Assembly: GCF_026151205.1 (NCBI RefSeq)
Contig: NC_087076.1
Location: forward strand, 21,940,828 to 22,004,827
From: Bolinopsis microptera
Lineage: Eukaryota > Ctenophora > Tentaculata > Lobata > Bolinopsidae
Length of the DNA stretch: 64,000 nt
Reading direction: 5' to 3'
In this document: one piece after another, positions 4,196 through 47,600 of the stretch
How the letters are laid out: the number at the start of each line of letters is the position of its first letter
How positions within the stretch are numbered: position 1 is the stretch's first letter
Notes under the pieces: generated by a model
The model's database searches: none
Told to the model about the DNA's origin: nothing
The model's input: only the letters and a program-made list of their open reading frames with translations
Program-made: the position numbers and the translations under genes

Positions 4196-4222
4196 GAAGC
4201 ATCTAAATATTATTTCCATTTT

Positions 4223-4281: not shown

Positions 4282-4289
4282 AACAGGAT

Positions 4290-4869: not shown

Positions 4870-4895
<26 letters not shown>
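4290..4895. repeat. Polypurine minisatellite, second block, ending in (GAG)n
   Basis: Same GGA/GAG composition as the block to its left, with GGATGGCTGAGGA variants. It ends in a pure GAG triplet run at about 4813-4893. Arg-rich (plus) and Leu-rich or Pro-rich (minus) frames across it are repeat artefacts. Confidence 0.85.
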
Positions 4896-17677: not shown

Positions 17678-20600
17678 GTAAGAATGTAAAAATAATATTT
17701 CATAATATATAATATGAGATATTATGTGTATATTGTTTGTATTTATGTATAATATATAAGTTATTGTACTTACTATGTGCTCACTTGTACATGTCAAGCT
17801 GTTTGCAATGTATTCATGCCTTGTTGCAGTGATTGTAGCTAATATTGGAGTGTGCACGTAGAGTTATCTCAAAATAATTCATGTCATACTCCGAGTTTCT
17901 CTCTGATGAGTCCCCTTATTCAGTGTACGGAGCATGTCAAACCCCTCAGTTCAGATCCCAGCTGTAGATAATGCTCCCTTCTCTAACTTCATGCCTGGTA
18001 GCAAGCTTCTTCAGGACGTCAAGCAGGTACCTATCTCCCTTCGCGTGGATTTGTGGTTATTAGTTTTAATTGTAGCTAAAATAAATAAGCAGAAAATGTC
18101 TGCTTATTTATTTTAGCTAAAAGTTAAACTTTTGGTATGGTTAATCATTGTTCACATTTGATTTCTAGCTTTCTAGCTATAGTGACAGTTAAAGATACAT
18201 TTAATAATCTGTACACTAGACACGTAACCTCACATTCTCCAACAGGAAGTGGACCAGCTCAGAAAGGAACCTATGGATATTCCAATTGTGATAGGAGGAA
18301 AAGAGATAAGAACTGATAACGTACACTATCAGAAGATTGTAAGTTTCATTGCTCTCTTCTTTATCTTGAAACTATTGATCATTGAACAGAATTATTGAAG
18401 ATAAGAACAGTTACTCGCTCTTAAATCGCTACATGTGCCAAATACTCTCCGTTACAAATATTGTTATCGTTAACCACTACATTGTACCCCATCTGAGTTA
18501 CATTGTACATTGTACATTATACATTATGTATTGTACAGTATATATTATACATTATACATTATACATTGTACATTATACCCTATACATTATACATTGTACT
18601 TCCCTCAGCCACACGACCACCAAGTTAACGTAGCTAAGTTCTGCTACGCTGATAAGTCCCAAATATCAGACGCTATTGAGTCCTGCCTTGCTGCCAGATC
18701 TAAATGGGAGCTCACCCCCTGGGAGCACAGGTACAGTTACCATGACTACACTACACACTACACAGGTACAGTTACCATGACTACACTACACAGGTACAGT
18801 TACCATGACTACACTACACAGGTACAGTTACCATGACTACACTACACAGGTACAATAACCATGACTACACTACACAGGTACAGTTACCATGACTACACTA
18901 CACAGGTACAGTAACCATGACTACACTACACATGTACAGTTACCATGACTACACAACACAGGTTACTTATTTTACTGTATTTGTTGTCGGTTTTAAATCA
19001 GTTTAATCACTTTATGTTAAGTTATTAAGTAAATGGTAAGTAATGACCCGAAACTATTCTTTATTTATTTAATTCATTTCTCGCCTCTCGTAATTCATTT
19101 GGCAGTGCCTCAATTCCATCTCCTTAACTTTTCTAAGCTTCCTCGCCTTTGCTTTCTATAAAATGATTATTTTCTAAGCAATCAAACATTGTTTGATTAA
19201 ATCAATTGTTTAATTAAATTTATATCAGAGCTGCAGTGTTCCTAAGAGCTGCTGAGTTGTTGGAGGGTAAATACAGAGCTAAGATCCTGGCAACAACAAT
19301 TCTGGGTCAGGTACGTGTTAAATAAAGCATTAATTAGCACCTGCTGGTAATTAGCACATGCTAATTAATCAGCACGTGCTAATTAATTAGCACGTCCATT
19401 ATTTAGCACGTGTTGGTAATTTCAACGTCAACTACAGATCATTACCTCGTTTATTATAGTAATAAGACAATAAGGACCGTAAATAACACACTACTGCTTC
19501 TATAATATATGTTATACGCCAAATTTACTTGCTAAGTTTATTTTCTGTTGTAAAGTTTTCGTTGATAACCGTTGTTTTTATTCTTTGGTTGAAACTACAA
19601 TTGATAGTAATAATTTAATAACACATAAATAATTATGTAGATTGTAGAAGAAAGCAGTAATCTTTAGTGACCATTGTGACTATTTAAAGATCCTTTCAGA
19701 GTAAAACACTGCAGCAGGCAGATATAGACGCCGTAGGGGAGACCATAGACTTCTACAGGTACACACCTGTTATATAAGCACCATACTGTTGTATATTATT
19801 GTACTAACACGAGTTATTAAAAACTTTTTAAAAATTAACAAAACACCATTCAAAAGCCATATTAAGCAGTATAGTGTAGTCATGGTAACTGTACCCATTG
19901 GGTACTACTCAAACGTAACATTATTATTATCGTGCAGGTTTGCAGTTAATTACGCAGAGGACTTGTACAATATGCAGCCTGAACATCACAGCAAGGGTAT
20001 CTGGAACAGAATCGAATGGAGAGGACTAGAGGTAGGTTTCCAGGGGCCGGGGCCGGGGCCGGGGGAGGGGGGGGGGGGGGGGGGGGGGGGGTAGGGGCCG
20101 CGCCGGGGGTGGGTGTTCTGTAATTGTGTGATTTAATATTATCACTTCACGTCTGCACCGTATACCGTTTATAGATCGCTTAAAACGTCCCAATTTCACA
20201 GTAAAATAAGTAATTTCCTTGAATTTAAGAACGCTAACTTTCCATAGCTTGCTTTCAGCATTCAGCACCTCGTAGCAGTAGTCTCCTACACCCACATTAT
20301 ATGTGTATATATATACTCCCCACACTTATAACTCCAACACATTATCACACACTTAGTACTTGCTGTTTGGTGTGAAGTGTTATTGTGCACATATTTACCC
20401 TGTGTTGGTGTGTTTCTTGGTATCCGTAATGTCTGGTTTCATAATTAGATTTATCAGTTTACATATTACAAATTCTTCTGGCATAATATAATATGCACAT
20501 AATATAATGCGCACCTGCAAACCATTAGTTTACAGTTATCAGAGTTTATTGCATTTTCTGTTCAAAAACGTTTGCTTCTTTTAAAAGGAGTGTCATGATC

Positions 20601-23600: not shown

Positions 23601-26600
23601 CCACTAGTTACCCACTATTTACCCACTATTTGCCCCACTATTTACCCCACTATTTACCCACTATTTACCCCACTATTTACCCCACTATTTACCCCACTAT
23701 TTACCCCACTATTTACCCCACTATTTACCCCACTATTTACCCACTATTTACCCCACTATTTACCCCACTAGTTACCCACTATTTACCCACTATTTACCCC
23801 ACTAGTTACCCACTATTTACCCCACTATTTACCCCACTATTTACCCACTATTTACCCACTATTTACCCACTATTTACCCACTATTTACCCCACTATTTAC
23901 CCCACTATTTAGCCACTATTTACCCACTAGTTACCCACTATTTACCCACTATTTACCCCACTATTTACCCACTAGTTACCCACTATTTACCCACTATTTA
24001 CCCCACTATTTACCCCACTATTTAGCCCACTATTTACCCCACTAGTTACCCCACTATTTACCCACTATTTACCCCACTATTTACCCCACTATTTACCCCA
24101 CTATTTACCCCACTATTTACCCCACTATTTACCCCTACAGGAGTGTGTAACTTCGTGCCATCAGATGGCCCTCTGTTCGGGGACACAGTAGTAGCTCACA
24201 GGGACTTAGCAGGGATCAGCTTTACAGGCTCCTCACCTACATTCCGCACATTGTGGAGAGGGGTCGGGGAGAATATAGAGAACTACAGGTACTAATACTA
24301 ATACTACTACTAATACTGTTAATAATAATAATACTACTAATATTACTATATAATTTATACTAACTATTGTGGAGAGGGGTCGGGGAGAATATAGAGAACT
24401 ACAGGTACTAATACTAATACTACTAATACTTATAACAATACTAATACAACTGCTAATACTACTAATACTTCTAATAATACTAATACTACTGCTAATCTTA
24501 CTATATATAAAGCGAGACGATATATATATATTTATCGTTGCCATTTTACTGACACCACGGCATCAACTTTAACGCGAATTTCTGCAAAAACCGTCAAAGA
24601 GTTACAACTGAAACTTTTTTGACTGGGTCAAATGCTTTAATGGCCTCCAAATCAGCATGAAAAAATAAAAAATTGGCCAAGAAATAGGAGTTTTAGAGCC
24701 CAAAATTTGGTACCCCAAGTGGTGTCAAAAACGCGAATTAAATAGGTAATAATTGTTTTAGTCTCTTGAGTCTTGACACCATTTTAGGGTTAGACGGGTT
24801 CCTGCTAGTACTACTAATACTTCTAATAATACTAATACTACTGCTAATACTACTAATACTTCTAATAATACTAATACTACTGCTAATACTACTAATACTT
24901 CTAATAATACTAATACTACTGCTAATACTACTAATACTTCTAATAATACTAATACTACTGCTAATACTACTAATACTTCTAATAATACTAATACTACTGC
25001 TAATACTACTAATACTTCTAATAATACTAATACTACTGCTAATACTACTAATACTTCTAATAATACTAATACTACTGCTAATACTACTAATACTTCTAAT
25101 AATACTAATACTACTGCTAATACTACTAATACTTCTAATAATACTAATACTACTGCTAATACTACTAATACTTCTAATAATACTAATACTACTAATACTA
25201 CTACTAATACTACTAATACTACTGCTAATACTACTAATACTACTAATAATATTAATAATAATAATACTACTAATACTACTATATTATAGATAATAACTAT
25301 GTATACCACATTGTGTTTGTAATGTCCACCAGTTTTCAAACATTTAAACTGATTGATAATTCAAAGAAGGAAATGCTATTATAGATTATTGTGGGAAGCT
25401 TGTTAAAGTTACTAAAAGCGAGAGTAAATTTACTATAATGTATAATGTATATTGTATAATGTTTATATTGTATAATGTATAAACCCCCGTTTAGAACCTA
25501 CCCGCGACTAGTTGGAGAGACAGGAGGGAAGAACTACCACCTGGTCCACCCTACTGCCTGCGTGGAGAGTGTTATTAACGGCACCATCCTCGCTTCCTTC
25601 GAGTACTCCGGCCAGAAGTGTAGTGCTTGTTCCAGGATGTACATTCCTGCTTCAGTCTGGGACCAGGTACAGTTACCATGACTACACTATACTGGTTACT
25701 ATGACTACACTATACTGATTACCATGACTACACTATACTGGTTACCATGACTACACTATAATGGTTACCATGACTACACTATACTGGTTACCATGACTAC
25801 ACTATACTGGTTACCATGACTACACTATACTGATTACCATGACTACACTATACTGGTTACTATGACTACACTATACTGATTACCATGACTACACTATACT
25901 GGTTACCATGACTACACTATACTGGTTACCATGACTACACTATACTGGTTACCATGACTACACTATACTGGTTACTATGACTACACTATACTGATTACCA
26001 TGACTACACTATACTGGTTACCATGACTACACTATACTGGTTACCATGACTACACTATACTGGTTACCATGACTACACTATACTGGTTACCACGACTAAA
26101 CACTGTACGGTTGAATGTTCTGGCCTATTTTTAAACTGAGAGTCAGTCCTGGCATATATAATACGCAACTTATCATGATAATAAATATAAAGGAGATCTT
26201 CCATCATGTATAATTACTAACACCCAAATCCTCACAAAACTCCCTTAATTCCCAGGTCAGAGACAAGCTAGTCTCTTCCACAGAGGCTCTTAATATTGGT
26301 TCTGCCGAGGACGCCAAATCCTTCACATCGGCAGTTATTGACGCCAAGAGCTTCTCCAAGATTAAGAGTTATGTTGACTTTGCTCGAGAGGACAGTTCAT
26401 GCGAGATTATAGCTGGAGGAGTCTGTGATGATAGGTTTGATAATTTGAATTAAAAGTTCCCGGTTGTATTGCGGGTTATTTGATGTTTGTCACCGATTAA
26501 AGACAGAAAACCTCAGTCTTCTCGTTCAGTTTTCGTTGTTGGCTATTAAATTGTTTCTCAGACATTTATTATTCATGACGTGAAGAAGAACCAGCTACAA

Positions 26601-29600
26601 CAAACTTCTTATAACAAAACTTCTAAACCCCTATAATTTAACCCCAAATACCAACTGTAACCCCCTCCCAGTGTTGGTTACTACGTGCAGCCTACCATAG
26701 TCCTCACTACAGACCCCCAATGTAAGCTGCTACACGAGGAGATATTCGGCCCCGTGTTGGCTGTGTATGTGTTTGAGGACGCGGAGTGGGACGATACTGT
26801 TAAACTGGTGGACAGTACCTCGCCTTACGGGCTTACTGGTTCTATCTTCTGTAGGGACAGGTCAGCATGCAGCTCTTATTAAATATTCTCATAGATAGTA
26901 CCTCGCCTTACGGGCTTACTGGTTCTATCTTCTGTAGGGACAGGTCAGCATGCAGCTCTTATTAAATAATCTCATAGATAGTACCTCGCCTTACAGGCTT
27001 ACTGGGTCTATCTTCTGTAGGGACAGGTCAGCATGCAGCTCTTATTAAATATTCTCATAGATAGTACCTCGCCTTACAGGCTTACTGGGTCTATCTTCTG
27101 TAGGGACAGGTCAGCATGCAGCTCTTATTAAATATTCTCATAGATAGTACCTCGCCTTACAGGCTTACTGGTTCTATCTTCTGTAGGGACAGGTCAGCAT
27201 GCAGCTCTTATTAAATATTCTCATAGATAGTACCTCGCCTTACGGGCTTACTGGTTCTATCTTCTGTAGGGACAGGTCAGCATGCAGCTCTTATTAAATA
27301 TTCTCATAGATAGTACCTCGCCTTACGGCTTACTGGGTCTATCTTCTGTAGGGACAGGTCAGCATGCAGCTCTTATTAAATATTCTCATAGATAGTACCT
27401 CTCCTTACGGGCTTACTGGTTCTATCTTCTGTAGGGACAGGTCAGCATGCAGCTCTTATTAAATATTCTCATAGATAGTACCTATCCTTCAGGTTTACTG
27501 GGTCTATCTTCTGTAGGGACAGGTCAGCATGCAGCTCTTATTAAATAATCTCATAGATAGTACCTATCCTTCAGGTTTACTGGGTCTATCTTCTGTAGGG
27601 ACAGGTCAGCATGCAGCTCTTATTATATATTCTCATAGATAGTACCTCGCCTTACGGGCTTACTGGTTCTATCTTCTGTAGGGACAGGTCAGCATGCAGC
27701 TCTTATTAAATATTCTCATAGATAGTACCTATCCTTCAGGTTTACTGGTTCTATCTTCTGTAGGGACAGGTCAGCATGCAGCTCTTATTAAATATTCTCA
27801 TAGATAGTACCTATCCTTCAGGTTTACTGGTTCTATCTTCTGTAGGGACAGGTCAGCATGCAGCTCTTATTAAATATTCTCATAGATAGTACCTCCTCTT
27901 ACTAGCTTACTGGTTCTATCTTCTGTAGGGACAGGTCAGCATGCAGCTCTTATTAAATATTCTCATAGATAGTACCTCTCTTACTAGTTTACTGGGTCTA
28001 TCTTCTGTAGGGACAGGTCAGCATGCAGCTCTTATTAAATATTCTCATAGATAGTACCTATCCTTCAGGTTTACTGGGTCTATCTTCTGTAGGGACAGGT
28101 CAGCATGCAGCTCTTATTAAATATTCTCATAGATAGTACCTCGCCTTACTAGCTTACTGGTTCTATCTTCTGTAGGGACAGGTCAGCATGCAGCTCTTAT
28201 TAAATATTCTCATAGATAGTACCTCGCCTTACTAGCTTACTGGGTCTATCTTCTGTAGGGACAGGTCAGCATGCAGCTCTTATTAAATATTCTCATAGAT
28301 AGTACCTATCCTTCAGGTTTACTGGTTCTATCTTCTGTAGGGACAGGTCAGCATGCAGCTCTTATTAAATATTCTCATAGATAGTACCTCCTCTTACTGG
28401 TTCTATCTTCTGTAGGGACAGGTCAGCATGCAGCTCTTATTAAATATTCTCATAGATAGTACCTATCCTTCAGGTTTACTGGTTCTATCTTCTGTAGGGA
28501 CAGGTCAGCATGCAGCTCTTATTAAATATTCTCATAGATAGTACCTCCTCTTACTGGTTCTATCTTCTGTAGGGACAGGTCAGCATGCAGCTCTTATTAA
28601 ATATTCTCATAGATAGTACCTATCCTTCAGGCTTACTGGGTCTATCTTCTGTAGGGACAGGTCAGCATGCAGCTCTTATTAAATAATCTCATAGATAGTA
28701 CCTCCTCTTACTAGCTTACTGGTTCTATCTTCTGTAGGGACAGGTCAGCATGCAGCTCTTATTATATATTCTCATAGATAGTACCTATCCTTCAGGTTTA
28801 CTGGTTCTATCTTCTGTAGGGACAGGTCAGCATGCAGCTCTTATTAAATATTCTCATAGATAGTACCTCCTCTTACTAGCTTACTGGGTCTATCTTCTGT
28901 AGGGACAGGTCAGCATGCAGCTCTTATTATATATTCTCATAGATAGTACCTCCTCTTACTGGTTCTATCTTCTGTAGGGACAGGTCAGCATGCAGCTCTT
29001 ATTAAATATTCTCATAGATAGTACCTATCCTTCAGGTTTACTGGTTCTATCTTCTGTAGGGACAGGTCAGCATGCAGCTCTTATTAAATATTCTCATAGA
29101 TAGTACCTCCTCTTACTGGGTCTATCTTCTGTAGGGACAGGTCAGCATGCAGCTCTTATTAAATATTCTCATAGATAGTACCTCCTCTTACTAGCTTACT
29201 GGTTCTATCTTCTGTAGGGACAGGTCAGCATGCAGCTCTTATTAAATATTCTCATAGATAGTACTCCTCTACTAGCTTACTGGTTCTATCTTCTGTAGGG
29301 ACAGGTCAGCATGCAGCTCTTATTAAATATTCTCATAGATAGTACCTCCTCTAGTTACTGGGTCTATCTTCTGTAGGGACAGGTCAGCATGCAGCTCTTA
29401 TTAAATATTCTCATAGATAGTACCTCCTCTACTGCTTACTGGTTCTATCTTCTGTAGGGACAGGTCAGCATGCAGCTCTTATTAAATATTCTCATAGATA
29501 GTACCTCCTCTTACTAGCTTACTGGTTCTATCTTCTGTAGGGACAGGTCAGCATGCAGCTCTTATTAAATATTCTCATAGATAGTACCTATCCTTCAGGT

Positions 29601-32600
29601 TTACTGGTTCTATCTTCTGTAGGGACAGGTCAGCATGCAGCTCTTATTAAATATTCTCATAGATAGTACCTCCTCTTACTGGTTCTATCTTCTGTAGGGA
29701 CAGGTCAGCATGCAGCTCTTATTAAATATTCTCATAGATAGTACCTTCCTCTTACTAGCTTACTGGTTCTATCTTCTGTAGGGACAGGTCAGCATGCAGC
29801 TCTTATTATATATTCTCATAGATAGTACCTATCCCTTCAGGTTACTGGTTCTATCTTCTGTAGGGACAGGTCAGCATGCAGCTCTTATTAAATATTCTCA
29901 TAGATAGTACCTAGCCTTAAGGGTTACTGGTTCTATCTTCTGTAGGGACAGGTCAGCATGCAGCTCTTATTAAATATTCTCATAGATAGTACCTCCTCTT
30001 ACTAGCTTTACTGGTTCTATCTTCTGTAGGGACAGGTCAGCATGCAGCTCTTATTATATATTCTCATAGATAGTACCTATCCTTCAGGTTTACTGGTTCT
30101 ATCTTCTGTAGGGACAGGTCAGCATGCAGCTCTTATTAAATATTCTCATAGATAGTACCTATCCTCAGGTTACTGGTTCTATCTTCTGTAGGGACAGGTC
30201 AGCATGCAGCTCTTATTAAATATTCTCATAGATAGTACCTATCCTTCAGGTTTACTGGTTCTATCTTCTGTAGGGACAGGTCAGCATGCAGCTCTTATTA
30301 AATATTCTCATAGATAGTACCTCCTCTTCTAGGTTTACTGGTTCTATCTTCTGTAGGGACAGGTCAGCATGCAGCTCTTATTAAATATTCTCATAGATAG
30401 TACCTATCCTTCAGGTTTACTGGTTCTATCTTCTGTAGGGACAGGTCAGCATGCAGCTCTTATTAAATATTCTCATAGATAGTACCTCCTCTTACTGGTT
30501 CTATCTTCTGTAGGGACAGGTCAGCATGCAGCTCTTATTAAATATTCTCATAGATAGTACCTATCCTTCAGGTTTACTGGGTCTATCTTCTGTAGGGACA
30601 GGTCAGCATGCAGCTCTTATTAAATATTCTCATAGATAGTACCTATCCTTCAGGCTTACTGGTTCTATCTTCTGTAGGGACAGGTCAGCATGCAGCTCTT
30701 ATTAAATATTCTCATAGATAGTACCTATCCTTCAGGTTTACTGGGTCTATCTTCTGTAGGGACAGGTCAGCATGCAGCTCTTATTAAATATTCTCATAGA
30801 TAGTACCTATCCTTCAGGTTTACTGGTTCTATCTTCTGTAGGGACAGGTCAGCATGCAGCTCTTATTAAATATTCTCATAGATAGTACCTATCCTTCAGG
30901 TTTACTGGGTCTATCTTCTGTAGGGACAGGTCAGCATGCAGCTCTTATTAAATATTCTCATAGATAGTACCTCGCCTTACAGGTTTACTGGTTCTATCTT
31001 CTGTAGGGACAGGTCAGCATGCAGCTCTTATTAAATATTCTCATAGATAGTACCTCCTCTTACTAGTTTACTGGTCTATCTTCTGTAGGGACAGGTCAGC
31101 ATGCAGCTCTTATTAAATATTCTCATAGATAGTACCTATCCTTCAGGTTTACTGGGTCTATCTTCTGTAGGGACAGGTCAGCATGCAGCTCTTATTAAAT
31201 ATTCTCATAGATAGTACCTCCTTCTAGGCTTACTGGTTCTATCTTCTGTAGGGACAGGTCAGCATGACAGCTCTTATTAATTATTCTCATAGGATAAGTA
31301 CCTCCTCTTACTAGGCTTTTACTGGGTCTATCTTCTGTAGGGACAGGTCAGCATGCAGCCCTTTATTTAAATATTCTCATAGATAGTACCTCCTCTTACT
31401 GGGTCTATCTTCTGTAGGGACAGGTCATAGCATGCAGCTCTTATTATATATTCTCATAGATAGTACCTCCTCTTACTAGCTTACTGGTCTATCTTCTGTA
31501 GGGACAGGTCTAGCATGCAGCTCTTATTAAATATTTCCTCATAGATAGTACCTCCTCTTATGGTTCTACTTCTGTAGGGACAGGTCAGCATGCAGCTCTT
31601 ATTAAATATTCTCATAGATAGTACCTCCTCTTCTAGTTTACTGGGTCTATCTTCTGTAGGGACAGGTCAGCATGCAGCTCTTATTAAATATTCTCATAGA
31701 TAGTACCTCCTCTTACTGGGTCTATCTTCTGTAGGGACAGGTCAGCATGCAGCTCTTATTAAATATTCTCATAGATAGTACCTCCTCTTACAGTTTACTG
31801 GTTCTATCTTCTGTAGGGACAGGTCAGCATGCAGCTCTTATTAAATATTCTCATAGATAGTACCTCCTCTTACTAGCTTACTGGTTCTATCTTCTGTAGG
31901 GACAGGTCAGCATGCAGCTCTTATTAAATATTCTCATAGATAGTACCTCCTCTTACTGGTTCTATCTTCTGTAGGGACAGGTCAGCATGCAGCTCTTATT
32001 AAATATTCTCATAGATAGTACCTATCCTTCAGGTTTACTGGTTCTATCTTCTGTAGGGACAGGTCAGCATGCAGCTCTTATTAAATATTCTCATAGATAG
32101 TACCTATCCTCAGTTACTGGGTCTATCTTCTGTAGGGACAGGTCAGCATGCAGCTCTTATTAAATATTCTCATAGATAGTACCTCCTCTTACTAGCTTAC
32201 TGGTTCTATCTTCTGTAGGGACAGGTCAGCATGCAGCTCTTATTAAATATTCTCATAGATAGTACCTCCTCTTACTAGCTTACTGGTTCTATCTTCTGTA
32301 GGGACAGGTCAGCATGCAGCTCTTATTAAATATTCTCATAGATAGTACCTCCTCTTACTGGGTCTATCTTCTGTAGGGACAGGTCAGCATGCAGCTCTTA
32401 TTAAATATTCTCATAGATAGTACCTCCTCTTACTAGCTTACTGGTTCTATCTTCTGTAGGGACAGGTCAGCATGCAGCTCTTATTAAATATTCTCATAGA
32501 TAGTACCTCCTCTTACTAGCTTACTGGTTCTATCTTCTGTAGGGACAGGTCAGCATGCAGCTCTTATTAAATATTCTCATAGATAGTACCTATCCTTCAG

Positions 32601-35600
32601 GTTTACTGGGTCTATCTTCTGTAGGGACAGGTCAGCATGCAGCTCTTATTATATATTCTCATAGATAGTACCTCCTCTTACTGGTTCTATCTTCTGTAGG
32701 GACAGGTCAGCATGCAGCTCTTATTAAATATTCTCATAGATAGTACCTCCTCTTACTAGCTTACTGGTTCTATCTTCTGTAGGGACAGGTCAGCATGCAG
32801 CTCTTATTATATATTCTCATAGATAGTACCTATCCTTCAGGTTTACTGGTTCTATCTTCTGTAGGGACAGGTCAGCATGCAGCTCTTATTAAATATTCTC
32901 ATAGATAGTACCTCGCCTTACGGGCTTACTGGTTCTATCTTCTGTAGGGACAGGTCAGCATACAGCTCTTATTAAATATTCTCATAGATAGTACCTCCTC
33001 TTACTAGCTTACTGGTTCTATCTTCTGTAGGGACAGGTCAGCATGCAGCTCTTATTATATATTCTCATAGATAGTACCTCGCCTTACGGGCTTACTGGTT
33101 CTATCTTCTGTAGGGACAGGTCAGCATGCAGCTCTTATTAAATATTCTCATAGATAGTACCTATCCTTCAGGTTTACTGGTTCTATCTTCTGTAGGGACA
33201 GGTCAGCATGCAGCTCTTATTAAATATTCTCATAGATAGTACCTATCCTTCAGGTTTACTGGTTCTATCTTCTGTAGGGACAGGTCAGCATGCAGCTCTT
33301 ATTAAATATTCTCATAGATAGTACCTATCCTTCAGGTTTACTGGTTCTATCTTCTGTAGGGACAGGTCAGCATGCAGCTCTTATTAAATAATCTCATAGA
33401 TAGTACCTCGCCTTACTAGCTTACTGGTTCTATCTTCTGTAGGGACAGGTCAGCATGCAGCTCTTATTAAATATTCTCATAGATAGTACCTCCTCTTACT
33501 AGTTTACTGGGTCTATCTTCTGTAGGGACAGGTCAGCATGCAGCTCTTATTAAATATTCTCATAGATAGTACCTATCCTTCAGGTTTACTGGGTCTATCT
33601 TCTGTAGGGACAGGTCAGCATGCAGCTCTTATTAAATATTCTCATAGATAGTACCTCGCCTTACTAGCTTACTGGTTCTATCTTCTGTAGGGACAGGTCA
33701 GCATGCAGCTCTTATTAAATATTCTCATAGATAGTACCTCGCCTTACTAGCTTACTGGGTCTATCTTCTGTAGGGACAGGTCAGCATGCAGCTCTTATTA
33801 AATATTCTCATAGATAGTACCTATCCTTCAGGTTTACTGGTTCTATCTTCTGTAGGGACAGGTCAGCATGCAGCTCTTATTAAATATTCTCATAGATAGT
33901 ACCTCCTCTTACTGGTTCTATCTTCTGTAGGGACAGGTCAGCATGCAGCTCTTATTAAATATTCTCATAGATAGTACCTATCCTTCAGGTTTACTGGTTC
34001 TATCTTCTGTAGGGACAGGTCAGCATGCAGCTCTTATTAAATATTCTCATAGATAGTACCTCCTCTTACTGGTTCTATCTTCTGTAGGGACAGGTCAGCA
34101 TGCAGCTCTTATTAAATATTCTCATAGATAGTACCTATCCTTCAGGCTTACTGGGTCTATCTTCTGTAGGGACAGGTCAGCATGCAGCTCTTATTAAATA
34201 ATCTCATAGATAGTACCTCCTCTTACTAGCTTACTGGTTCTATCTTCTGTAGGGACAGGTCAGCATGCAGCTCTTATTATATATTCTCATAGATAGTACC
34301 TATCCTTCAGGTTTACTGGTTCTATCTTCTGTAGGGACAGGTCAGCATGCAGCTCTTATTAAATATTCTCATAGATAGTACCTCCTCTTACTAGCTTACT
34401 GGGTCTATCTTCTGTAGGGACAGGTCAGCATGCAGCTCTTATTATATATTCTCATAGATAGTACCTCCTCTTACTGGTTCTATCTTCTGTAGGGACAGGT
34501 CAGCATGCAGCTCTTATTAAATATTCTCATAGATAGTACCTATCCTTCAGGTTTACTGGTTCTATCTTCTGTAGGGACAGGTCAGCATGCAGCTCTTATT
34601 AAATATTCTCATAGATAGTACCTCCTCTTACTGGGTCTATCTTCTGTAGGGACAGGTCAGCATGCAGCTCTTATTAAATATTCTCATAGATAGTACCTCC
34701 TCTTACTAGCTTACTGGTTCTATCTTCTGTAGGGACAGGTCAGCATGCAGCTCTTATTAAATATTCTCATAGATAGTACCTCCTCTTACTAGCTTACTGG
34801 TTCTATCTTCTGTAGGGACAGGTCAGCATGCAGCTCTTATTAAATATTCTCATAGATAGTACCTCCTCTTACTGGGTCTATCTTCTGTAGGGACAGGTCA
34901 GCATGCAGCTCTTATTAAATATTCTCATAGATAGTACCTCCTCTTACTAGCTTACTGGTTCTATCTTCTGTAGGGACAGGTCAGCATGCAGCTCTTATTA
35001 AATATTCTCATAGATAGTACCTCCTCTTACTAGCTTACTGGTTCTATCTTCTGTAGGGACAGGTCAGCATGCAGCTCTTATTAAATATTCTCATAGATAG
35101 TACCTATCCTTCAGGTTTACTGGGTCTATCTTCTGTAGGGACAGGTCAGCATGCAGCTCTTATTATATATTCTCATAGATAGTACCTCCTCTTACTGGTT
35201 CTATCTTCTGTAGGGACAGGTCAGCATGCAGCTCTTATTAAATATTCTCATAGATAGTACCTCCTCTTACTAGCTTACTGGTTCTATCTTCTGTAGGGAC
35301 AGGTCAGCATGCAGCTCTTATTATATATTCTCATAGATAGTACCTATCCTTCAGGTTTACTGGTTCTATCTTCTGTAGGGACAGGTCAGCATGCAGCTCT
35401 TATTAAATATTCTCATAGATAGTACCTCGCCTTACGGGCTTACTGGTTCTATCTTCTGTAGGGACAGGTCAGCATACAGCTCTTATTAAATATTCTCATA
35501 GATAGTACCTCCTCTTACTAGCTTACTGGTTCTATCTTCTGTAGGGACAGGTCAGCATGCAGCTCTTATTATATATTCTCATAGATAGTACCTATCCTTC

Positions 35601-38600
35601 AGGTTTACTGGTTCTATCTTCTGTAGGGACAGGTCAGCATGCAGCTCTTATTAAATATTCTCATAGATAGTACCTATCCTTCAGGTTTACTGGTTCTATC
35701 TTCTGTAGGGACAGGTCAGCATGTAGCTCTTATTAAATATTCTCATAGATAGTACCTATCCTTCAGGTTTACTGGTTCTATCTTCTGTAGGGACAGGTCA
35801 GCATGCAGCTCTTATTAAATATTCTCATAGATAGTACCTCCTCTTACTAGTTTACTGGGTCTATCTTCTGTAGGGACAGGTCAGCATGCAGCTCTTATTA
35901 AATATTCTCATAGATAGTACCTATCCTTCAGGTTACTGGTTCTATCTTCTGTAGGGACAGGTCAGCATGCAGCTCTTATTAAATATTCTCATAGATAGTA
36001 CCTCCTCTTACTGGTTCTATCTTCTGTAGGGACAGGTCAGCATGCAGCTCTTATTAAATATTCTCATAGATAGTACCTATCCTTCAGGTTTACTGGGTCT
36101 ATCTTCTGTAGGGACAGGTCAGCATGCAGCTCTTATTAAATATTCTCATAGATAGTACCTATCCTTCAGGCTTACTGGTCTATCTTCTGTAGGGACAGGT
36201 CAGCATGCAGCTCTTATTAAATATTCTCATAGATAGTACCTATCCTTCAGGTTTACTGGGTCTATCTTCTGTAGGGACAGGTCAGCATGCAGCTCTTATT
36301 AGATATTCTCATAGATAGTACCTCCTCTTACTGGGTCTATCTTCTGTAGGGACAGGTCAGCATGCAGCTCTTATTAAATATTCTCATAGATAGTACCTAT
36401 CCTTCAGGTTTACTGGTTCTATCTTCTGTAGGGACAGGTCAGCATGCAGCTCTTATTAAATATTCTCATAGATAGTACCTATCCTTCAGGTTTACTGGTT
36501 CTATCTTCTGTAGGGACAGGTCAGCATGCAGCTCTTATTAAATATTCTCATAGATAGTACCGCCTCTTACTAGCTTACTGGTTCTATCTTCTGTAGGGAC
36601 AGGTCAGCATGCAGCTCTTATTAAATATTCTCATAGATAGTACCTATCCTTCAGGTTTACTGGGTCTATCTTCTGTAGGGACAGGTCAGCATGCAGCTCT
36701 TATTAAATATTCTCATAGATAGTACCTCCTCTTACTGGGTCTATCTTCTGTAGGGACAGGTCAGCATGCAGCTCTTATTATATATTCTCATAGATAGTAC
36801 CTCCTCTTACTAGCTTACTGGTTCTATCTTCTGTAGGGACAGGTCAGCATGCAGCTCTTATTAAATATTCTCATAGATAGTACCTCCTCTTACTGGTTCT
36901 ATCTTCTGTAGGGACAGGTCAGCATGCAGCTCTTATTAAATATTCTCATAGATAGTACCTCCTCTTACTAGTTTACTGGGTCTATCTTCTGTAGGGACAG
37001 GTCAGCATGCAGCTCTTATTAAATATTCTCATAGATAGTACCTCCTCTTACTGGGTCTATCTTCTGTAGGGACAGGTCAGCATGCAGCTCTTATTAAATA
37101 TTCTCATAGATAGTACCTCCTCTTACTAGTTTACTGGGTCTATCTTCTGTAGGGACAGGTCAGCATGCAGCTCTTATTAAATATTCTCATAGATAGTACC
37201 TCGCCTTACGGGCTTACTGGTTCTATCTTCTGTAGGGACAGGTCAGCATACAGCTCTTATTAAATATTCTCATAGATAGTACCTCCTCTTACTAGCTTAC
37301 TGGTTCTATCTTCTGTAGGGACAGGTCAGCATGCAGCTCTTATTATATATTCTCATAGATAGTACCTATCCTTCAGGTTTACTGGTTCTATCTTCTGTAG
37401 GGACAGGTCAGCATGCAGCTCTTATTAAATATTCTCATAGATAGTACCTATCCTTCAGGTTTACTGGTTCTATCTTCTGTAGGGACAGGTCAGCATGTAG
37501 CTCTTATTAAATATTCTCATAGATAGTACCTATCCTTCAGGTTTACTGGTTCTATCTTCTGTAGGGACAGGTCAGCATGCAGCTCTTATTAAATATTCTC
37601 ATAGATAGTACCTCCTCTTACTAGTTTACTGGGTCTATCTTCTGTAGGGACAGGTCAGCATGCAGCTCTTATTAAATATTCTCATAGATAGTACCTATCC
37701 TTCAGGTTTACTGGTTCTATCTTCTGTAGGGACAGGTCAGCATGCAGCTCTTATTAAATATTCTCATAGATAGTACCTCCTCTTACTGGTTCTATCTTCT
37801 GTAGGGACAGGTCAGCATGCAGCTCTTATTAAATATTCTCATAGATAGTACCTATCCTTCAGGTTTACTGGGTCTATCTTCTGTAGGGACAGGTCAGCAT
37901 GCAGCTCTTATTAAATATTCTCATAGATAGTACCTATCCTTCAGGCTTACTGGTTCTATCTTCTGTAGGGACAGGTCAGCATGCAGCTCTTATTAAATAT
38001 TCTCATAGATAGTACCTATCCTTCAGGTTTACTGGGTCTATCTTCTGTAGGGACAGGTCAGCATGCAGCTCTTATTAGATATTCTCATAGATAGTACCTC
38101 CTCTTACTGGGTCTATCTTCTGTAGGGACAGGTCAGCATGCAGCTCTTATTAAATATTCTCATAGATAGTACCTATCCTTCAGGTTTACTGGTTCTATCT
38201 TCTGTAGGGACAGGTCAGCATGCAGCTCTTATTAAATATTCTCATAGATAGTACCTATCCTTCAGGTTTACTGGTTCTATCTTCTGTAGGGACAGGTCAG
38301 CATGCAGCTCTTATTAAATATTCTCATAGATAGTACCGCCTCTTACTAGCTTACTGGTTCTATCTTCTGTAGGGACAGGTCAGCATGCAGCTCTTATTAA
38401 ATATTCTCATAGATAGTACCTATCCTTCAGGTTTACTGGGTCTATCTTCTGTAGGGACAGGTCAGCATGCAGCTCTTATTAAATATTCTCATAGATAGTA
38501 CCTCCTCTTACTGGGTCTATCTTCTGTAGGGACAGGTCAGCATGCAGCTCTTATTATATATTCTCATAGATAGTACCTCCTCTTACTAGCTTACTGGTTC

Positions 38601-41600
38601 TATCTTCTGTAGGGACAGGTCAGCATGCAGCTCTTATTAAATATTCTCATAGATAGTACCTCCTCTTACTGGTTCTATCTTCTGTAGGGACAGGTCAGCA
38701 TGCAGCTCTTATTAAATATTCTCATAGATAGTACCTCCTCTTACTAGTTTACTGGGTCTATCTTCTGTAGGGACAGGTCAGCATGCAGCTCTTATTAAAT
38801 ATTCTCATAGATAGTACCTCCTCTTACTGGGTCTATCTTCTGTAGGGACAGGTCAGCATGCAGCTCTTATTAAATATTCTCATAGATAGTACCTCCTCTT
38901 ACTAGTTTACTGGGTCTATCTTCTGTAGGGACAGGTCAGCATGCAGCTCTTATTAAATATTCTCATAGATAGTACCTCCTCTTACTGGTTCTATCTTCTG
39001 TAGGGACAGGTCAGCATGCAGCTCTTATTAAATATTCTCATAGATAGTACCTCCTCTTACTGGGTCTATCTTCTGTAGGGACAGGTCAGCATGCAGCTCT
39101 TATTATATATTCTCATAGATAGTACCTCCTCTTACTAGCTTACTGGTTCTATCTTCTGTAGGGACAGGTCAGCATGCAGCTCTTATTAAATATTCTCATA
39201 GATAGTACCTCCTCTTACTAGCTTACTGGTTCTATCTTCTGTAGGGACAGGTCAGCATGCAGCTCTTATTAAATATTCTCATAGATAGTACCTCCTCTTA
39301 CTGGGTCTATCTTCTGTAGGGACAGGTCAGCATGCAGCTCTTATTATATATTCTCATAGATAGTACCTATCCTTCAGGTTTACTGGTTCTATCTTCTGTA
39401 GGGACAGGTCAGCATGCAGCTCTTATTAAATATTCTCATAGATAGTACCTCCTCTTACTGGTTCTATCTTCTGTAGGGACAGGTCAGCATGCAGCTCTTA
39501 TTAAATATTCTCATAGATAGTACCTCCTCTTACTAGCTTACTGGTTCTATCTTCTGTAGGGACAGGTCAGCATGCAGCTCTTATTATATATTCTCATAGA
39601 TAGTACCTCGCCTTACTAGCTTACTGGTTCTATCTTCTGTAGGGACAGGTCAGCATGCAGCTCTTATTAAATATTCTCATAGATAGTACCTCCTCTTACT
39701 GGTTCTATCTTCTGTAGGGACAGGTCAGCATGCAGCTCTTATTAAATATTCTCATAGATAGTACCTCCTCTTACTAGCTTACTGGTTCTATCTTCTGTAG
39801 GGACAGGTCAGCATGCAGCTCTTATTAAATATTCTCATAGATAGTACCTCCTCTTACTGGGTCTATCTTCTGTAGGGACAGGTCAGCATGCAGCTCTTAT
39901 TAAATATTCTCATAGATAGTACCTCCTCTTACTAGCTTACTGGTTCTATCTTCTGTAGGGACAGGTCAGCATGCAGCTCTTATTAAATATTCTCATAGAT
40001 AGTACCTCCTCTTACTAGCTTACTGGTTCTATCTTCTGTAGGGACAGGTCAGCATGCAGCTCTTATTAAATATTCTCATAGATAGTACCTCCTCTTACTG
40101 GTTCTATCTTCTGTAGGGACAGGTCAGCATGCAGCTCTTATTAAATATTCTCATAGATAGTACCTCCTCTTACTAGCTTACTGGTTCTATCTTCTGTAGG
40201 GACAGGTCAGCATGCAGCTCTTATTAAATATTCTCATAGATAGTACCTCCTCTTACTAGCTTACTGGTTCTATCTTCTGTAGGGACAGGTCAGCATGCAG
40301 CTCTTATTAAATATTCTCATAGATAGTACCTCCTCTTACTAGCTTACTGGTTCTATCTTCTGTAGGGACAGGTCAGCATGCAGCTCTTATTAAATATTCT
40401 CATAGATAGTACCTCCTCTTACTAGCTTACTGGTTCTATCTTCTGTAGGGACAGGTCAGCATGCAGCTCTTATTAAATATTCTCATAGATAGTACCTCCT
40501 CTACTAGCTTACTGGTTCTATCTTCTGTAGGGACAGGTCAGCATGCAGCTCTTATTAAATATTCTCATAGATAGTACCTCCTCTTACTAGCTTACTGGTT
40601 CTATCTTCTGTAGGGACAGGTCAGCATGCAGCTCTTATTAAATATTCTCATAGATAGTACCTCCTCTTACTAGCTTACTGGTTCTATCTTCTGTAGGGAC
40701 AGGTCAGCATGCAGCTCTTATTAAATATTCTCATAGATAGTACCTCCTCTTACTAGCTTACTGGTTCTATCTTCTGTAGGGACAGGTCAGCATGCAGCTC
40801 TTATTAAATATTCTCATAGATAGTACCTCCTCTTACTAGCTTACTGGTTCTATCTTCTGTAGGGACAGGTCAGCATGCAGCTCTTATTAAATATTCTCAT
40901 AGATAGTACCTCCTCTTACTAGCTTACTGGGTCTATCTTCTGTAGGGACAGGTCAGCATGCAGCTCTTATTATATATTCTCATAGATAGTACCTCCTCTT
41001 ACTAGCTTACTGGTTCTATCTTCTGTAGGGACAGGTCAGCATGCAGCTCTTATTAAATATTCTCATAGATAGTACCTCCTCTTACTAGCTTACTGGTCTA
41101 TCTTCTGTAGGGACAGGTCAGCATGCAGCTCTTATTATATATTCTCATAGATAGTACCTCCTCTTACTAGCTTACTGGTTCTATCTTCTGTAGGGACAGG
41201 TCAGCATGCAGCTCTTATTAAATATTCTCATAGATAGTACCTCCTCTTACTAGCTTACTGGGTCTATCTTCTGTAGGGACAGGTCAGCATGCAGCTCTTA
41301 TTAAATATTCTCATAGATAGTACCTCCTCTTACTAGCTTACTGGTTCTATCTTCTGTAGGGACAGGTCAGCATGCAGCTCTTATTAAATATTCTCATAGA
41401 TAGTACCTCCTCTTACTAGCTTACTGGCTCTATCTTCTGTAGGGACAGGTCAGCATGCAGCTCTTATTAAATATTCTCATAGATAGTACCTCCTCTTACT
41501 GGTTCTATCTTCTGTAGGGACAGGTCAGCATGCAGCTCTTATTAAATATTCTCATAGATAGTACCTCCTCTTACTAGCTTACTGGTTCTATCTTCTGTAG

Positions 41601-44600
41601 GGACAGGTCAGCATGCAGCTCTTATTATATATTCTCATAGATAGTACCTCCTCTTACTAGCTTACTGGTTCTATCTTCTGTAGGGACAGGTCAGCATGCA
41701 GCTCTTATTAAATATTCTCATAGATAGTACCTCCTCTTACTAGCTTACTGGTTCTATCTTCTGTAGGGACAGGTCAGCATGCAGCTCTTATTATATATTC
41801 TCATAGATAGTACCTCCTCTTACTAGCTTACTGGTTCTATCTTCTGTAGGGACAGGTCAGCATGCAGCTCTTATTAAATATTCTCATAGATAGTACCTCC
41901 TCTTACTAGCTTACTGGGTCTATCTTCTGTAGGGACAGGTCAGCATGCAGCTCTTATTATATATTCTCATAGATAGTACCTCCTCTTACTAGCTTACTGG
42001 TTCTATCTTCTGTAGGGACAGGTCAGCATGCAGCTCTTATTATATATTCTCATAGATAGTACCTCGCCTTACGGGCTTACTGGGTCTATCTTCTGTAGGG
42101 ACAGGTCAGCATGCAGCTCTTATTATATATTCTCATAGATAGTACCTCCTCTTACTAGCTTACTGGTTCTATCTTCTGTAGGGACAGGTCAGCATGCAGC
42201 TCTTATTATATATTCTCATAGATAGTACCTCCTCTTACTAGCTTACTGGTTCTATCTTCTGTAGGGACAGGTCAGCATGCAGCTCTTATTATATATTCTC
42301 ATAGATAGTACCTCTCTTACTAGCTTACTGGTTCTATCTTCTGTAGGGACAGGTCAGCATGCAGCTCTTATTATATATTCTCATAGATAGTACCTCCTCT
42401 TACTAGCTTACTGGTTCTATCTTCTGTAGGGACAGGTCAGCATGCAGCTCTTATTAAATATTCTCATAGATAGTACCTCCTCTTACTGGTTCTATCTTCT
42501 GTAGGGACAGGTCAGCATGCAGCTCTTATTAAATATTCTCATAGATAGTACCTCCTCTTACTGATTCTATCTTCTGTAGGGACAGGTCAGCATGCAGCTC
42601 TTATTATATATTCTCATAGATAGTACCTCCTCTTACTGGTTCTATCTTCTGTAGGGACAGGTCAGCATGCAGCTCTTATTAAATATTCTCATAGATAGTA
42701 CCTCCTCTTACTGGTTCTATCTTCTGTAGGGACAGGTCAGCATGCAGCTCTTATTAAATATTCTCATAGATAGTACCTCGCCTTACTAGCTTACTGGTTC
42801 TATCTTCTGTAGGGACAGGTCAGCATGCAGCTCTTATTAAATATTCTCATAGATAGTACCTCCTCTTACTGGTTCTATCTTCTGTAGGGACAGGTCAGCA
42901 TGCAGCTCTTATTAAATATTCTCATAGATAGTACCTCCTCTTACTAGCTTACTGGTTCTATCTTCTGTAGGGACAGGTCAGCATGCAGCTCTTATTAAAT
43001 ATTCTCATAGATAGTACCTCCTCTTACTAGCTTACTGGTTCTATCTTCTGTAGGGACAGGTCAGCATGCAGCTCTTATTAAATATTCTCATAGATAGTAC
43101 CTCCTCTTACTAGCTTACTGGTTCTATCTTCTGTAGGGACAGGTCAGCATGCAGCTCTTATTATATATTCTCATAGATAGTACCTATCCTTCAGGTTTAC
43201 TGGGTCTATCTTCTGTAGGGACAGGTCAGCATGCAGCTCTTATTAAATATTCTCATAGATAGTACCTATCCTTCAGGTTTACTGGTTCTATCTTCTGTAG
43301 GGACAGGTCAGCATGCAGCTCTTATTAAATATTCTCATAGATAGTACCTATCCTTCAGGTTTACTGGTTCTATCTTCTGTAGGGACAGGTCAGCATGCAG
43401 CTCTTATTAAATATTCTCATAGATAGTACCTCGCCTTACTAGCTTACTGGTTCTATCTTCTGTAGGGACAGGTCAGCATGCAGCTCTTATTAAATATTCT
43501 CATAGATAGTACCTATCCTTCAGGTTTACTGGTTCTATCTTCTGTAGGGACAGGTCAGCATGCAGCTCTTATTAAATATTCTCATAGATAGTACCTATCC
43601 TTCAGGTTTACTGGGTCTATCTTTTGTAGGGACAGGTCAGCATGCAGCTCTTATTAAATATTCTCATAGATAGTACCTCCTCTTACTAGCTTACTGGTTC
43701 TATCTTCTGTAGGGACAGGTCAGCATGCAGCTCTTATTAAATATTCTCATAGATAGTACCTATCCTTCAGGTTTACTGGTTCTATCTTCTGTAGGGACAG
43801 GTCAGCATGCAGCTCTTATTAAATATTCTCATAGATAGTACCTCCTCTTACTGGGTCTATCTTCTGTAGGGACAGGTCAGCATGCAGCTCTTATTAAATA
43901 TTCTCATAGATAGTACCTCCTCTTACTGGTTCTATCTTCTGTAGGGACAGGTCAGCATGCAGCTCTTATTAAATATTCTCATAGATAGTACCTATCCTTC
44001 AGGTTTACTGGTTCTATCTTCTGTAGGGACAGGTCAGCATGCAGCTCTTATTAAATATTCTCATAGATAGTACCTCCTCTTACTGGTTCTATCTTCTGTA
44101 GGGACAGGTCAGCATGCAGCTCTTATTAAATATTCTCATAGATAGTACCTATCCTTCAGGTTTACTGGGTCTATCTTCTGTAGGGACAGGTCAGCATGCA
44201 GCTCTTATTAAATATTCTCATAGATAGTACCTCCTCTTACTGGTTCTATCTTCTGTAGGGACAGGTCAGCATGCAGCTCTTATTAAATATTCTCATAGAT
44301 AGTACCTCCTCTTACTGGTTCTATCTTCTGTAGGGACAGGTCAGCATGCAGCTCTTATTAAATATTCTCATAGATAGTACCTATCCTTCAGGTTTACTGG
44401 TTCTATCTTCTGTAGGGACAGGTCAGCATGCAGCTCTTATTAAATATTCTCATAGATAGTACCTCCTCTTACTGGTTCTATCTTCTGTAGGGACAGGTCA
44501 GCATGCAGCTCTTATTAAATATTCTCATAGATAGTACCTATCCTTCAGGTTTACTGGGTCTATCTTCTGTAGGGACAGGTCAGCATGCAGCTCTTATTAA

Positions 44601-47600
44601 ATATTCTCATAGATAGTACCTCCTCTTACTGGTTCTATCTTCTGTAGGGACAGGTCAGCATGCAGCTCTTATTAAATATTCTCATAGATAGTACCTATCC
44701 TTCAGGTTTACTGGTTCTATCTTCTGTAGGGACAGGTCAGCATGCAGCTCTTATTAAATATTCTCATAGATAGTACCTCCTCTTACTAGCTTACTGGTTC
44801 TATCTTCTGTAGGGACAGGTCAGCATGCAGCTCTTATTAAATATTCTCATAGATAGTACCTCCTCTTACTAGCTTACTGGGTCTATCTTCTGTAGGGACA
44901 GGTCAGCATGCAGCTCTTATTAAATATTCTCATAGATAGTACCTCCTCTTACTGGTTCTATCTTCTGTAGGGACAGGTCAGCATGCAGCTCTTATTAAAT
45001 ATTCTCATAGATAGTACCTCCTCTTACTGGGTCTATCTTCTGTAGGGACAGGTCAGCATGCAGCTCTTATTAAATTTTCTCATAGATAGTACCTCCTCTT
45101 ACTGGTTCTATCTTCTGTAGGGACAGGTCAGCATGCAGCTCTTATTAAATATTCTCATAGATAGTACCTCCTCTTACTGGGTCTATCTTCTGTAGGGACA
45201 GGTCAGCATGCAGCTCTTATTAAATATTCTCATAGATAGTACCTCCTCTTACTAGCTTACTGGGTCTATCTTCTGTAGGGACAGGTCAGCATGCAGCTCT
45301 TATTAAATATTCTCATAGATAGTACCTCCTCTTACTGGTTCTATCTTCTGTAGGGACAGGTCAGCATGCAGCTCTTATTAAATATTCTCATAGATAGTAC
45401 CTCCTCTTACTGGTTCTATCTTCTGTAGGGACAGGTCAGCATGCAGCTCTTATTAAATATTCTCATAGATAGTACCTATCCTTCAGGTTTACTGGTTCTA
45501 TCTTCTGTAGGGACAGGTCAGCATGCAGCTCTTATTAAATATTCTCATAGATAGTACCTCCTCTTACTAGCTTACTGGTTCTATCTTCTGTAGGGACAGG
45601 TCAGCATGCAGCTCTTATTAAATATTCTCATAGATAGTACCTATCCTTCAGGTTTACTGGTTCTATCTTCTGTAGGGACAGGTCAGCATGCAGCTCTTAT
45701 TAAATATTCTCATAGATAGTACCTCCTCTTACTGGGTCTATCTTCTGTAGGGACAGGTCAGCATGCAGCTCTTATTAAATATTCTCATAGATAGTACCTC
45801 CTCTTACTGGGTCTATCTTCTGTAGGGACAGGTCAGCATGCAGCTCTTATTAAATATTCTCATAGATAGTACCTATCCTTCAGGTTTACTGGGTCTATCT
45901 TCTGTAGGGACAGGTCAGCATGCAGCTCTTATTATATATTCTCATAGATAGTACCTATCCTTCAGGTTTACTGGTTCTATCTTCTGTAGGGACAGGTCAG
46001 CATGCAGCTCTTATTAAATATTCTCATAGATAGTACCTATCCTTCAGGTTTACTGGTTCTATCTTCTGTAGGGACAGGTCAGCATGCAGCTCTTATTAAA
46101 TATTCTCATAGATAGTACCTATCCTTCAGGTTTACTGGTTCTATCTTCTGTAGGGACAGGTCAGCATGCAGCTCTTATTAAATATTCTCATAGATAGTAC
46201 CTCCTCTTACTAGCTTACTGGTTCTATCTTCTGTAGGGACAGGTCAGCATGCAGCTCTTATTAAATATTCTCATAGATAGTACCTCCTCTTACTGGGTCT
46301 ATCTTCTGTAGGGACAGGTCAGCATGCAGCTCTTATTAAATATTCTCATAGATAGTACCTCCTCTTACTAGCTTACTGGTTCTATCTTCTGTAGGGACAG
46401 GTCAGCATGCAGCTCTTATTAAATATTCTCATAGATAGTACCTCCTCTTACTAGCTTACTGGTTCTATCTTCTGTAGGGACAGGTCAGCATGCAGCTCTT
46501 ATTAAATATTCTCATAGATAGTACCTATCCTTCAGGTTTACTGGTTCTATCTTCTGTAGGGACAGGTCAGCATGCAGCTCTTATTAAATATTCTCATAGA
46601 TAGTACCTCGCCTTACGGGCTTACTGAGTCTATCTTCTGTAGGGACAGGTCAGCATGCAGCTCTTATTAAATATTCTCATAGATAGTACCTCCTCTTACT
46701 AGCTTACTGGTTCTATCTTCTGTAGGGACAGGTCAGCATGCAGCTCTTATTAAATATTCTCATAGATAGTACCTCCTCTTACTAGCTTACTGGTTCTATC
46801 TTCTGTAGGGACAGGTCAGCATGCAGCTCTTATTATATATTCTCATAGATAGTACCTCCTCTTACTAGCTTACTGGGTCTATCTTCTGTAGGGACAGGTC
46901 AGCATGCAGCTCTTATTAAATATTCTCATAGATAGTACCTCCTCTTACTAGCTTACTGGTTCTATCTTCTGTAGGGACAGGTCAGCATGCAGCTCTTATT
47001 AAATATTCTCATAGATAGTACCTCCTCTTACTAGCTTACTGGTTCTATCTTCTGTAGGGACAGGTCAGCATGCAGCTCTTATTAAATATTCTCATAGATA
47101 GTACCTCCTCTTACTAGCTTACTGGTTCTATCTTCTGTAGGGACAGGTCAGCATGCAGCTCTTATTAAATATTCTCATAGATAGTACCTCCTCTTACTAG
47201 CTTACTGGTTCTATCTTCTGTAGGGACAGGTCAGCATGCAGCTCTTATTAAATATTCTCATAGATAGTACCTCCTCTTACTAGCTTACTGGTTCTATCTT
47301 CTGTAGGGACAGGTCAGCATGCAGCTCTTATTAAATATTCTCATAGATAGTACCTCCTCTTACTAGCTTACTGGTTCTATCTTCTGTAGGGACAGGTCAG
47401 CATGCAGCTCTTATTAAATATTCTCATAGATAGTACCTCGCCTTACGGGCTTACTGAGTCTATCTTCTGTAGGGACAGGTCAGCATGCAGCTCTTATTAA
47501 ATATTCTCATAGATAGTACCTCGCCTTACGGGCTTACTGGGTCTATCTTCTGTAGGGACAGGTCAGCATGCAGCTCTTATTAAATATTCTCATCAGTACT

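What the first reader, a model, noticed from the sequence alone, without database searches (positions are those of the whole stretch)
26814..47594. 20-kb minisatellite born from an exon-intron junction of ALDH4A1
Seen: each unit joins the first ~35 nt of intron 12 to a copy of the last 47 nt of exon 12, ending in the same ACAG|GTCAGC. By estimate 260 consecutive 5' splice sites in near-native context follow the real one. Known: weak or decoy splice sites can affect exon definition. Inferred: the transcript must choose the first donor or a decoy, and the array should perturb splicing or act as a snRNP sponge unless suppressed. The gene remains fully in frame, so the animal evidently tolerates it.
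Basis: partly seen in the sequence, partly recalled or inferred. Interest (0 to 1): 0.9.

Follow-up and report, generated by a model that had tools for sequence, protein, structure and literature searches.

The report
Giant mirage minisatellite of duplicated splice donors
In what looks like a comb jelly, the junction between an exon and an intron of a metabolic gene has been copied head to tail more than 250 times, an extreme case of a repeat type described in lancelets and a natural test of how a cell picks one splice site among hundreds of identical ones.

Summary
Confirmed. Window 26814-47593 is an 83-bp array (TRF 257 copies); each unit joins the first 36 nt of ALDH4A1 intron 12 to a copy of the last 47 nt of exon 12. 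The true donor (26861) is followed by 256 decoys, 254 of them exact over 12 nt. The 13-exon gene is intact (559 aa; P5CDH, E 1.6e-191). It is a known kind, the 'mirage' minisatellite of amphioxus (PMC3087553, passages), apparently in the ctenophore Bolinopsis microptera (inferred from assembly statistics) and far larger than published globin mirages of 3-6 units. Smaller boundary repeats occur at introns 4 and 9 of this gene, in a second window gene and in one gene-like stretch of a 200-kb sample, but at 0 of 18 other ALDH-family matches; a sample-wide scan found no GT excess. Most likely: duplication, then neutral expansion, tolerated because the first donor ends a normal 189-nt exon and decoys add an early stop. 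Splicing effects and the sponge idea are untested. Copy number is uncertain.

The parts
26672..26860 (+). ALDH4A1 exon 12 (189 nt); its last 47 nt (26814-26860) are the exonic part of the repeat unit
   Evidence: translation and splice sites; homology to P5CDH
26858..26866 (+). authentic 5' splice site of intron 12, CAG|GTCAGC (GT at 26861)
   Evidence: 7 of 9 matches to CAGGTAAGT
26814..47593 (+). 83-bp minisatellite, about 257 copies; 256 decoy donors after the real one
47594..47731 (+). unrepeated 3' end of intron 12 with the acceptor taccacccag|
47732..47966 (+). ALDH4A1 exon 13 (last coding exon)
24250..24464 (+). second boundary duplication in the same gene: last 39 nt of exon 9 plus donor and intron start, copied once (donors at 24289 and 24405)
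   Evidence: 62 of 64 positions identical over exon tail plus 25 nt
18726..18963 (+). 28-bp array from the donor of intron 4 (18731); 9 places with CACAGGT or CACATGT, the real donor included
25667..26098 (+). 23-bp array starting 5 nt behind the donor of intron 10; shares its unit sequence with intron 4
56706..57005 (+). 43-bp array at a donor of another, unidentified gene: 10-nt exon tail, GTGAGT donor and acceptor-like TTTTTAG|AG; 7 donor places including the real one (56716), the last with GC
   Evidence: no homology found

Best explanation
A mirage-type minisatellite. A segment spanning the 5' splice site of ALDH4A1 intron 12 was duplicated in tandem, probably between short direct repeats, then expanded by multi-unit exchanges inside the intron (shown: the sequence and the repeated blocks; inferred: the mechanism). 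It has no necessary function. The transcript uses the first donor because only that one closes the normal 189-nt exon 12 behind its own acceptor; any decoy would lengthen exon 12 by one or more units of about 83 nt and read into a TAA 20-22 nt after the first donor, so mis-spliced RNA would be truncated and probably degraded (stop shown; donor choice and decay inferred).
For: The exon copy in unit 1 is identical to the exon 12 tail; units closest to the junction lie at the two ends (mean edit distance 3.27 in units 1-15 and 3.73 in units 241-255 against 4.73-11.2 in the blocks between; last two units 2 and 1; the intron half of the yardstick is that of unit 1). A run of 15 units starting at unit 15 recurs at unit 82, and label agreement peaks at lag 22 (0.23 against 0.13 by chance; lag 31: 0.18). 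CAGTAC stands in the exon at 26813-26818 and again at 47594-47599 just past the array. Intact 13-exon frame of 559 aa, P5CDH E 1.6e-191. The unit probe has as many hits in the genome as in the window (254). 56 of 83 unit columns are invariant, the 9 donor columns among them, so there is no special conservation of the donor. Other boundary repeats: introns 9 and 4, the gene at 56.7 kb, L009. 7 of 12 tandem arrays in ALDH4A1 introns start within 30 nt of a donor or span it, against 1.03 expected from random placement (p 5e-6).
Against: No RNA evidence that the first donor is the one used. The last decoy lies 170 nt from the acceptor, about as short as the gene's shortest intron (179 nt), so intron definition would favour it. 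The joint between units is not a clean exchange at CAGTAC: it reads CTCATAGATAGTACC, with AGAT where a C is expected. The placement test is post hoc, on one gene, with arrays picked by hand. 0 of 18 other ALDH-family matches show a repeat at the match edge, and the sample-wide scan gave no excess of duplicated GT junctions over other dinucleotides.
Confidence: 0.8

Rival explanations
1. The array regulates ALDH4A1: decoy donors compete for U1 and yield unproductive transcripts, so array length tunes expression.
For: 254 decoys identical to the real donor over 12 nt; an in-frame stop 20-22 nt after the real donor in every lengthened exon.
Against: No selective signature at the donor columns beyond the rest of the unit; published mirages are reported not to interfere with regular splicing.
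Confidence: 0.1
2. The copy number is inflated or rearranged by the assembly; the true array is much shorter.
For: Unit sequences seen only once are concentrated in units 31-60 (16 of 40; another 7 in units 1-15), and rare states in units 16-60 (22 of 32 after leaving out the 160-nt double unit 57, which itself looks error-laden) (one search gave 92 of 110 with that unit included). A 15-unit run recurs on either side of this stretch. The assembly probably in question was scaffolded, gap-closed and Illumina-polished (PMC10232365, passages).
Against: 62 distinct units in irregular order; removing the repeated blocks as artefacts would still leave roughly 200 units (my estimate).
Confidence: 0.25
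3. snRNP sponge: the transcribed intron sequesters U1 in trans.
For: More than 250 donors with 7 of 9 matches to the U1 consensus per transcript.
Against: As many probe hits in the window as in the genome, so one locus; U1 is, from recall, far more abundant than any one pre-mRNA; no conservation signature.
Confidence: 0.02
4. Recursive splicing: the pyrimidine-rich run and TAG|GGACAG|GT in each unit let the intron be removed in steps.
For: The common unit holds TTCTATCTTCTGTAG six nt before the GT.
Against: The AG just before the GT is preceded by GGAC, not by the pyrimidine run of a ratchet site (ratchet consensus from recall); no RNA evidence.
Confidence: 0.03

Closest known systems
Amphioxus 'mirages' (Adh3, globins BflGb6 and BflGb9, TnC, PGBD5)
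   Same: Minisatellite-like tandem duplications that span an exon-intron boundary, AG/GT signals in many units, block-wise homogenisation with boundary units exempt, splicing reported as regular (PMC3087553, passages; PMC3902484, passage).
   Different: Published BflGb6 mirages have 3 and 6 units of 150-160 bp and Adh3 units are 10-72 bp; here about 257 units of 83 bp over 20.8 kb, apparently in a ctenophore rather than a cephalochordate.
[quoted passage not shown] potato RdRp case)
   Same: Tandem duplication across an exon-intron boundary that copies splice signals (PMC4974935, abstract).
   Different: No new intron is evident: the array lies inside an intron whose acceptor is not part of the repeat.
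Ordinary intronic minisatellites
   Same: Growth by multi-unit blocks, variant repeats; tandem arrays are common in this genome.
   Different: The unit contains coding sequence and the authentic donor.

Membership tests
mirage minisatellite | tandem repeat whose unit spans an exon-intron boundary of a gene | tested here: met
   47 nt exon plus 36 nt intron per unit; intact frame
mirage minisatellite | repeat units carry AG/GT splice signals | tested here: met
   254 exact and 2 slightly altered donors in 256 copies after the real one
mirage minisatellite | homogenisation inside the cluster, boundary units left out | tested here: met
   repeated blocks inside, units closest to the junction at both ends; some inner units also carry the unchanged exon tail (units 74, 76, 105, 127)
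mirage minisatellite | regular splicing in spite of the repeats | not testable with these tools
   no RNA data
mirage minisatellite | length polymorphism, germline or somatic | not testable with these tools
   one assembly only
intron gain by tandem duplication | duplication supplies the splice sites of a new intron | tested here: not met
   exon 13 acceptor is outside the repeat and 0 of 12 acceptors of the gene are duplicated within 3 kb
species assignment: Bolinopsis microptera | 265 Mb, 346 scaffolds, 13 chromosome-scale scaffolds holding 97.23% of bases | tested here: inconclusive
   C1-C13 are 15.2-26.2 Mb and sum to 258.07 of 264.65 Mb (97.51%); C14 and C15 are 198 and 168 kb, the other 217 contigs were not looked at; 258.07/0.9723 = 265.4 Mb; 232 contigs held against 346 published (PMC11797021 table; PMC10232365)

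The most novel reading that the evidence does not exclude
In this ctenophore lineage 5' splice sites are recurrent birthplaces of minisatellites, so that introns lengthen from their donor end by tandem copying of the exon-intron junction, and units can move between donors of one gene (introns 4 and 10 share an 18-base core whose 17 exact genome hits all lie in this gene).
Probability: 0.25. Interest if true: 0.75.

Novelty: new variant of a known kind. Interest (0 to 1): 0.5.

Why it matters
It is a natural experiment on donor choice: one real 5' splice site followed by more than 250 copies in near-native context, with a premature stop as a built-in readout of errors. If the first donor is used almost always, position relative to the exon, not donor sequence, decides. 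It also appears to put mirages, which my searches found only in lancelets, into a phylum near the base of the animals, which would suggest that boundary-born minisatellites are either ancient or arise repeatedly and may be a route of intron growth.

Tried and rejected
Homology of the gene at 56.7 kb: no convincing match in PDB (one hit at E 0.027 to a giant bacterial protein) and none in Pfam for its exon-like stretches (one search did find a FLYWCH domain elsewhere in that region); a resemblance to GLMP that I thought I saw is recall only and unsupported. Species from COX1 (no match) and from 18S (no answer); 111 homeodomain matches fit an animal but name no phylum; assembly size in papers (3 papers, 2 listed) led to a nematode and a strawberry.

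Genome-wide enrichment: 7 of 142 arrays (window and 20 sample loci) carry a strong donor in at least half of the copies (donor matrix from recall, no shuffle control; its threshold misses the arrays at intron 4 and at 56.7 kb). A scan of 22 sequences (window, L008-L027, L051) for first-copy junctions next to coding-like sequence gave, at score 10 or more, GT 5 of 590, against TG 11 of 532, CA 7 of 535, AC 9 of 565, GC 6 of 233, AT 9 of 729, CT 6 of 676, GA 59 of 585: no excess of GT, so no genome-wide claim is made. That scan is also insensitive: the known donor at 26861 is not among its top 18 rows; two of its five GT hits led to the L009 case, none to the main array.

Other ALDH-family matches: 0 of 18 loci with a repeated 14-mer at the match edge. 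The test is weak: match edges are not exact exon ends, and several loci are exons of one gene; one repeated 14-mer, 40 nt outside the match of L036, belongs to an 11-bp array. Acceptor-side clustering of arrays in ALDH4A1: 3 of 12, p 0.07. The 12 arrays were picked by hand; overlapping rows of the same array were dropped. The 142-bp tandem pair in L014 was looked at and not shown to be coding. The acceptor count printed (1) came from a wrong pattern; the right count is 7. The 2002 paper cited for the first mirages is not held and is known to me through PMC3087553.

Full report
Observation. TRF places an 83-bp array at 26814-47593 with 257 copies. Splitting at the donor gives 256 anchors, 255 of them exact, the first being the true donor; a further altered donor sits in a 160-nt double unit, so 256 decoys follow, 254 exact. 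There are 62 distinct units among 255, mostly of 83, 82 and 75 nt. Each unit is 36 nt of the start of intron 12 followed by a copy of the last 47 nt of exon 12.

Gene. Reading the exons by hand gives a 13-exon gene with an open frame of 559 codons, aligned over residues 27-558 to a mitochondrial P5CDH (ALDH4A1) at E 1.6e-191 (single exons). Intron 12 is 20,871 nt, 26861-47731; the array fills all of it but the last 138 nt. Reading past the first donor meets TAA at 20-22 nt, so every decoy gives a truncated protein.

Anatomy of the array. 56 of 83 unit columns never vary; the nine donor columns are among them. Of the 27 variable columns 14 are columns 42-55. Unit types recur in runs: 15 units starting at unit 15 recur at unit 82, and label agreement peaks at lag 22. 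The units most like the real junction lie at the two ends. Unit sequences seen once are dense in units 31-60 (16 of 40), and the double unit 57 looks error-laden; this reads as an unpolished stretch, so the exact copy number is not to be trusted. There is no long open frame in the array (at most 41 aa on the plus strand and 61 aa on the minus strand). A 24-base unit probe with up to 2 mismatches has 254 forward hits and no reverse ones in the genome, none for the reversed control, and the window holds 254, so the unit is confined to this locus at that sensitivity.

Breakpoints. CAGTAC stands in the exon at 26813-26818 and again at 47594-47599, directly after the array. The joint inside the array reads CTCATAGATAGTACC, while the unrepeated intron reads CTCATCAGTACTTTATAGATTAGTATG. 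The joint is therefore not a clean exchange at CAGTAC; its AGAT resembles intron sequence a few nt beyond the array end. Duplication at short homology is likely but not proven.

Is it alone? No. With a test that asks for a copy of the last 20 exonic nt (up to 3 mismatches) within 3 kb, 2 of 12 ALDH4A1 donors (introns 9 and 12) and 0 of 12 acceptors are duplicated. Intron 9 has one extra copy of the last 39 exonic nt with its donor. Intron 4 has a 28-bp array whose units carry the last 5 exonic nt and the donor, which that test is too strict to count. A gene at 56.7 kb has a 43-bp array with 7 donor places, 6 of them GT, and 7 acceptor-like ends. In 200 kb of genome sample, one gene-like stretch (L009, minus strand, open frame ending NLEVCH) has its donor in a 67-bp tandem pair that repeats the last 7 exonic nt. 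In ALDH4A1, 7 of 12 arrays start within 30 nt of a donor or span it, against 1.03 expected (p 5e-6), a post hoc test on one gene. Against generality: 0 of 18 other ALDH-family matches (a weak test), and no GT excess in the sample scan (an insensitive test).

Organism. C1-C13 of the 232 contigs are 15.2-26.2 Mb and sum to 258.07 Mb, 97.51% of the held 264.65 Mb; C14 and C15 are 198 and 168 kb, and the remaining 217 contigs, not looked at, share what is left of 6.58 Mb. Bolinopsis microptera is published at 265 Mb, 346 scaffolds, 13 chromosomes (PMC11797021, table passage), with 97.23% in 13 scaffolds (PMC10232365, figure legend passage); 258.07/0.9723 is 265.4 Mb. The fit is close and the scaffold count differs, so the species is inferred, not shown.

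Comparison with what is known. PMC3087553 (passages) describes minisatellite-like tandem duplications of exon-intron boundaries in amphioxus genes, named mirages, with AG/GT in many units, length instability, boundary units spared from homogenisation, and regular splicing as suggested by RT-PCR; PMC3902484 (passage) adds PGBD5 and TnC. The present array meets the structural features. It differs in size and apparently in phylum. Paper searches for ctenophore with minisatellite (3 papers, none on this by title; 15 of 33 listed) and for boundary-spanning minisatellites listed no ctenophore case; I saw listings only, and the library holds only open-licence papers.

How it works. Most likely it does nothing required. 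Donor choice is settled by exon definition on the first donor, and errors are lost through the early stop; both are inference from general knowledge of splicing. The sponge and regulatory readings remain possible but have no support here.

Noticed in passing
window 18731-18963, 19872-19889, 25667-26098: An 18-base core shared by the minisatellites at the donors of ALDH4A1 introns 4 and 10, with one inverted copy in intron 6; all 17 exact genome hits lie in this gene, as if units had been copied between introns.
   Followed up: partly
window 56706-57005: 43-bp array at a donor of an unidentified gene; each unit holds a 10-nt exon tail, a GTGAGT donor and an acceptor-like end, that is a potential 12-nt exon with a 31-nt intron.
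   Followed up: partly
L009 3894-4033 (minus strand): Exon-intron junction in a 67-bp tandem pair in a gene-like stretch of a random sample; a VWD match (E 4.3e-7) lies about 1.3 kb further along the same strand.
   Followed up: partly
sample loci L008-L027 and window: 142 tandem arrays of period 12 or more cover about 61,304 of 264,000 bases (arrays may overlap by up to 30%): a genome very rich in minisatellites.
   Followed up: no
window 2326-4895; L017, L018: Long degenerate GGA-rich arrays recur on C5 and C6, in the window with decamers such as TTTTTGTCCG beside them.
   Followed up: no
window 57877-59300: A FLYWCH domain (58245-58403, E 8.6e-11) between repeats like CGGACAGATGTCGCTGTCGGACAG read by eye, perhaps a DNA transposon.
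   Followed up: no
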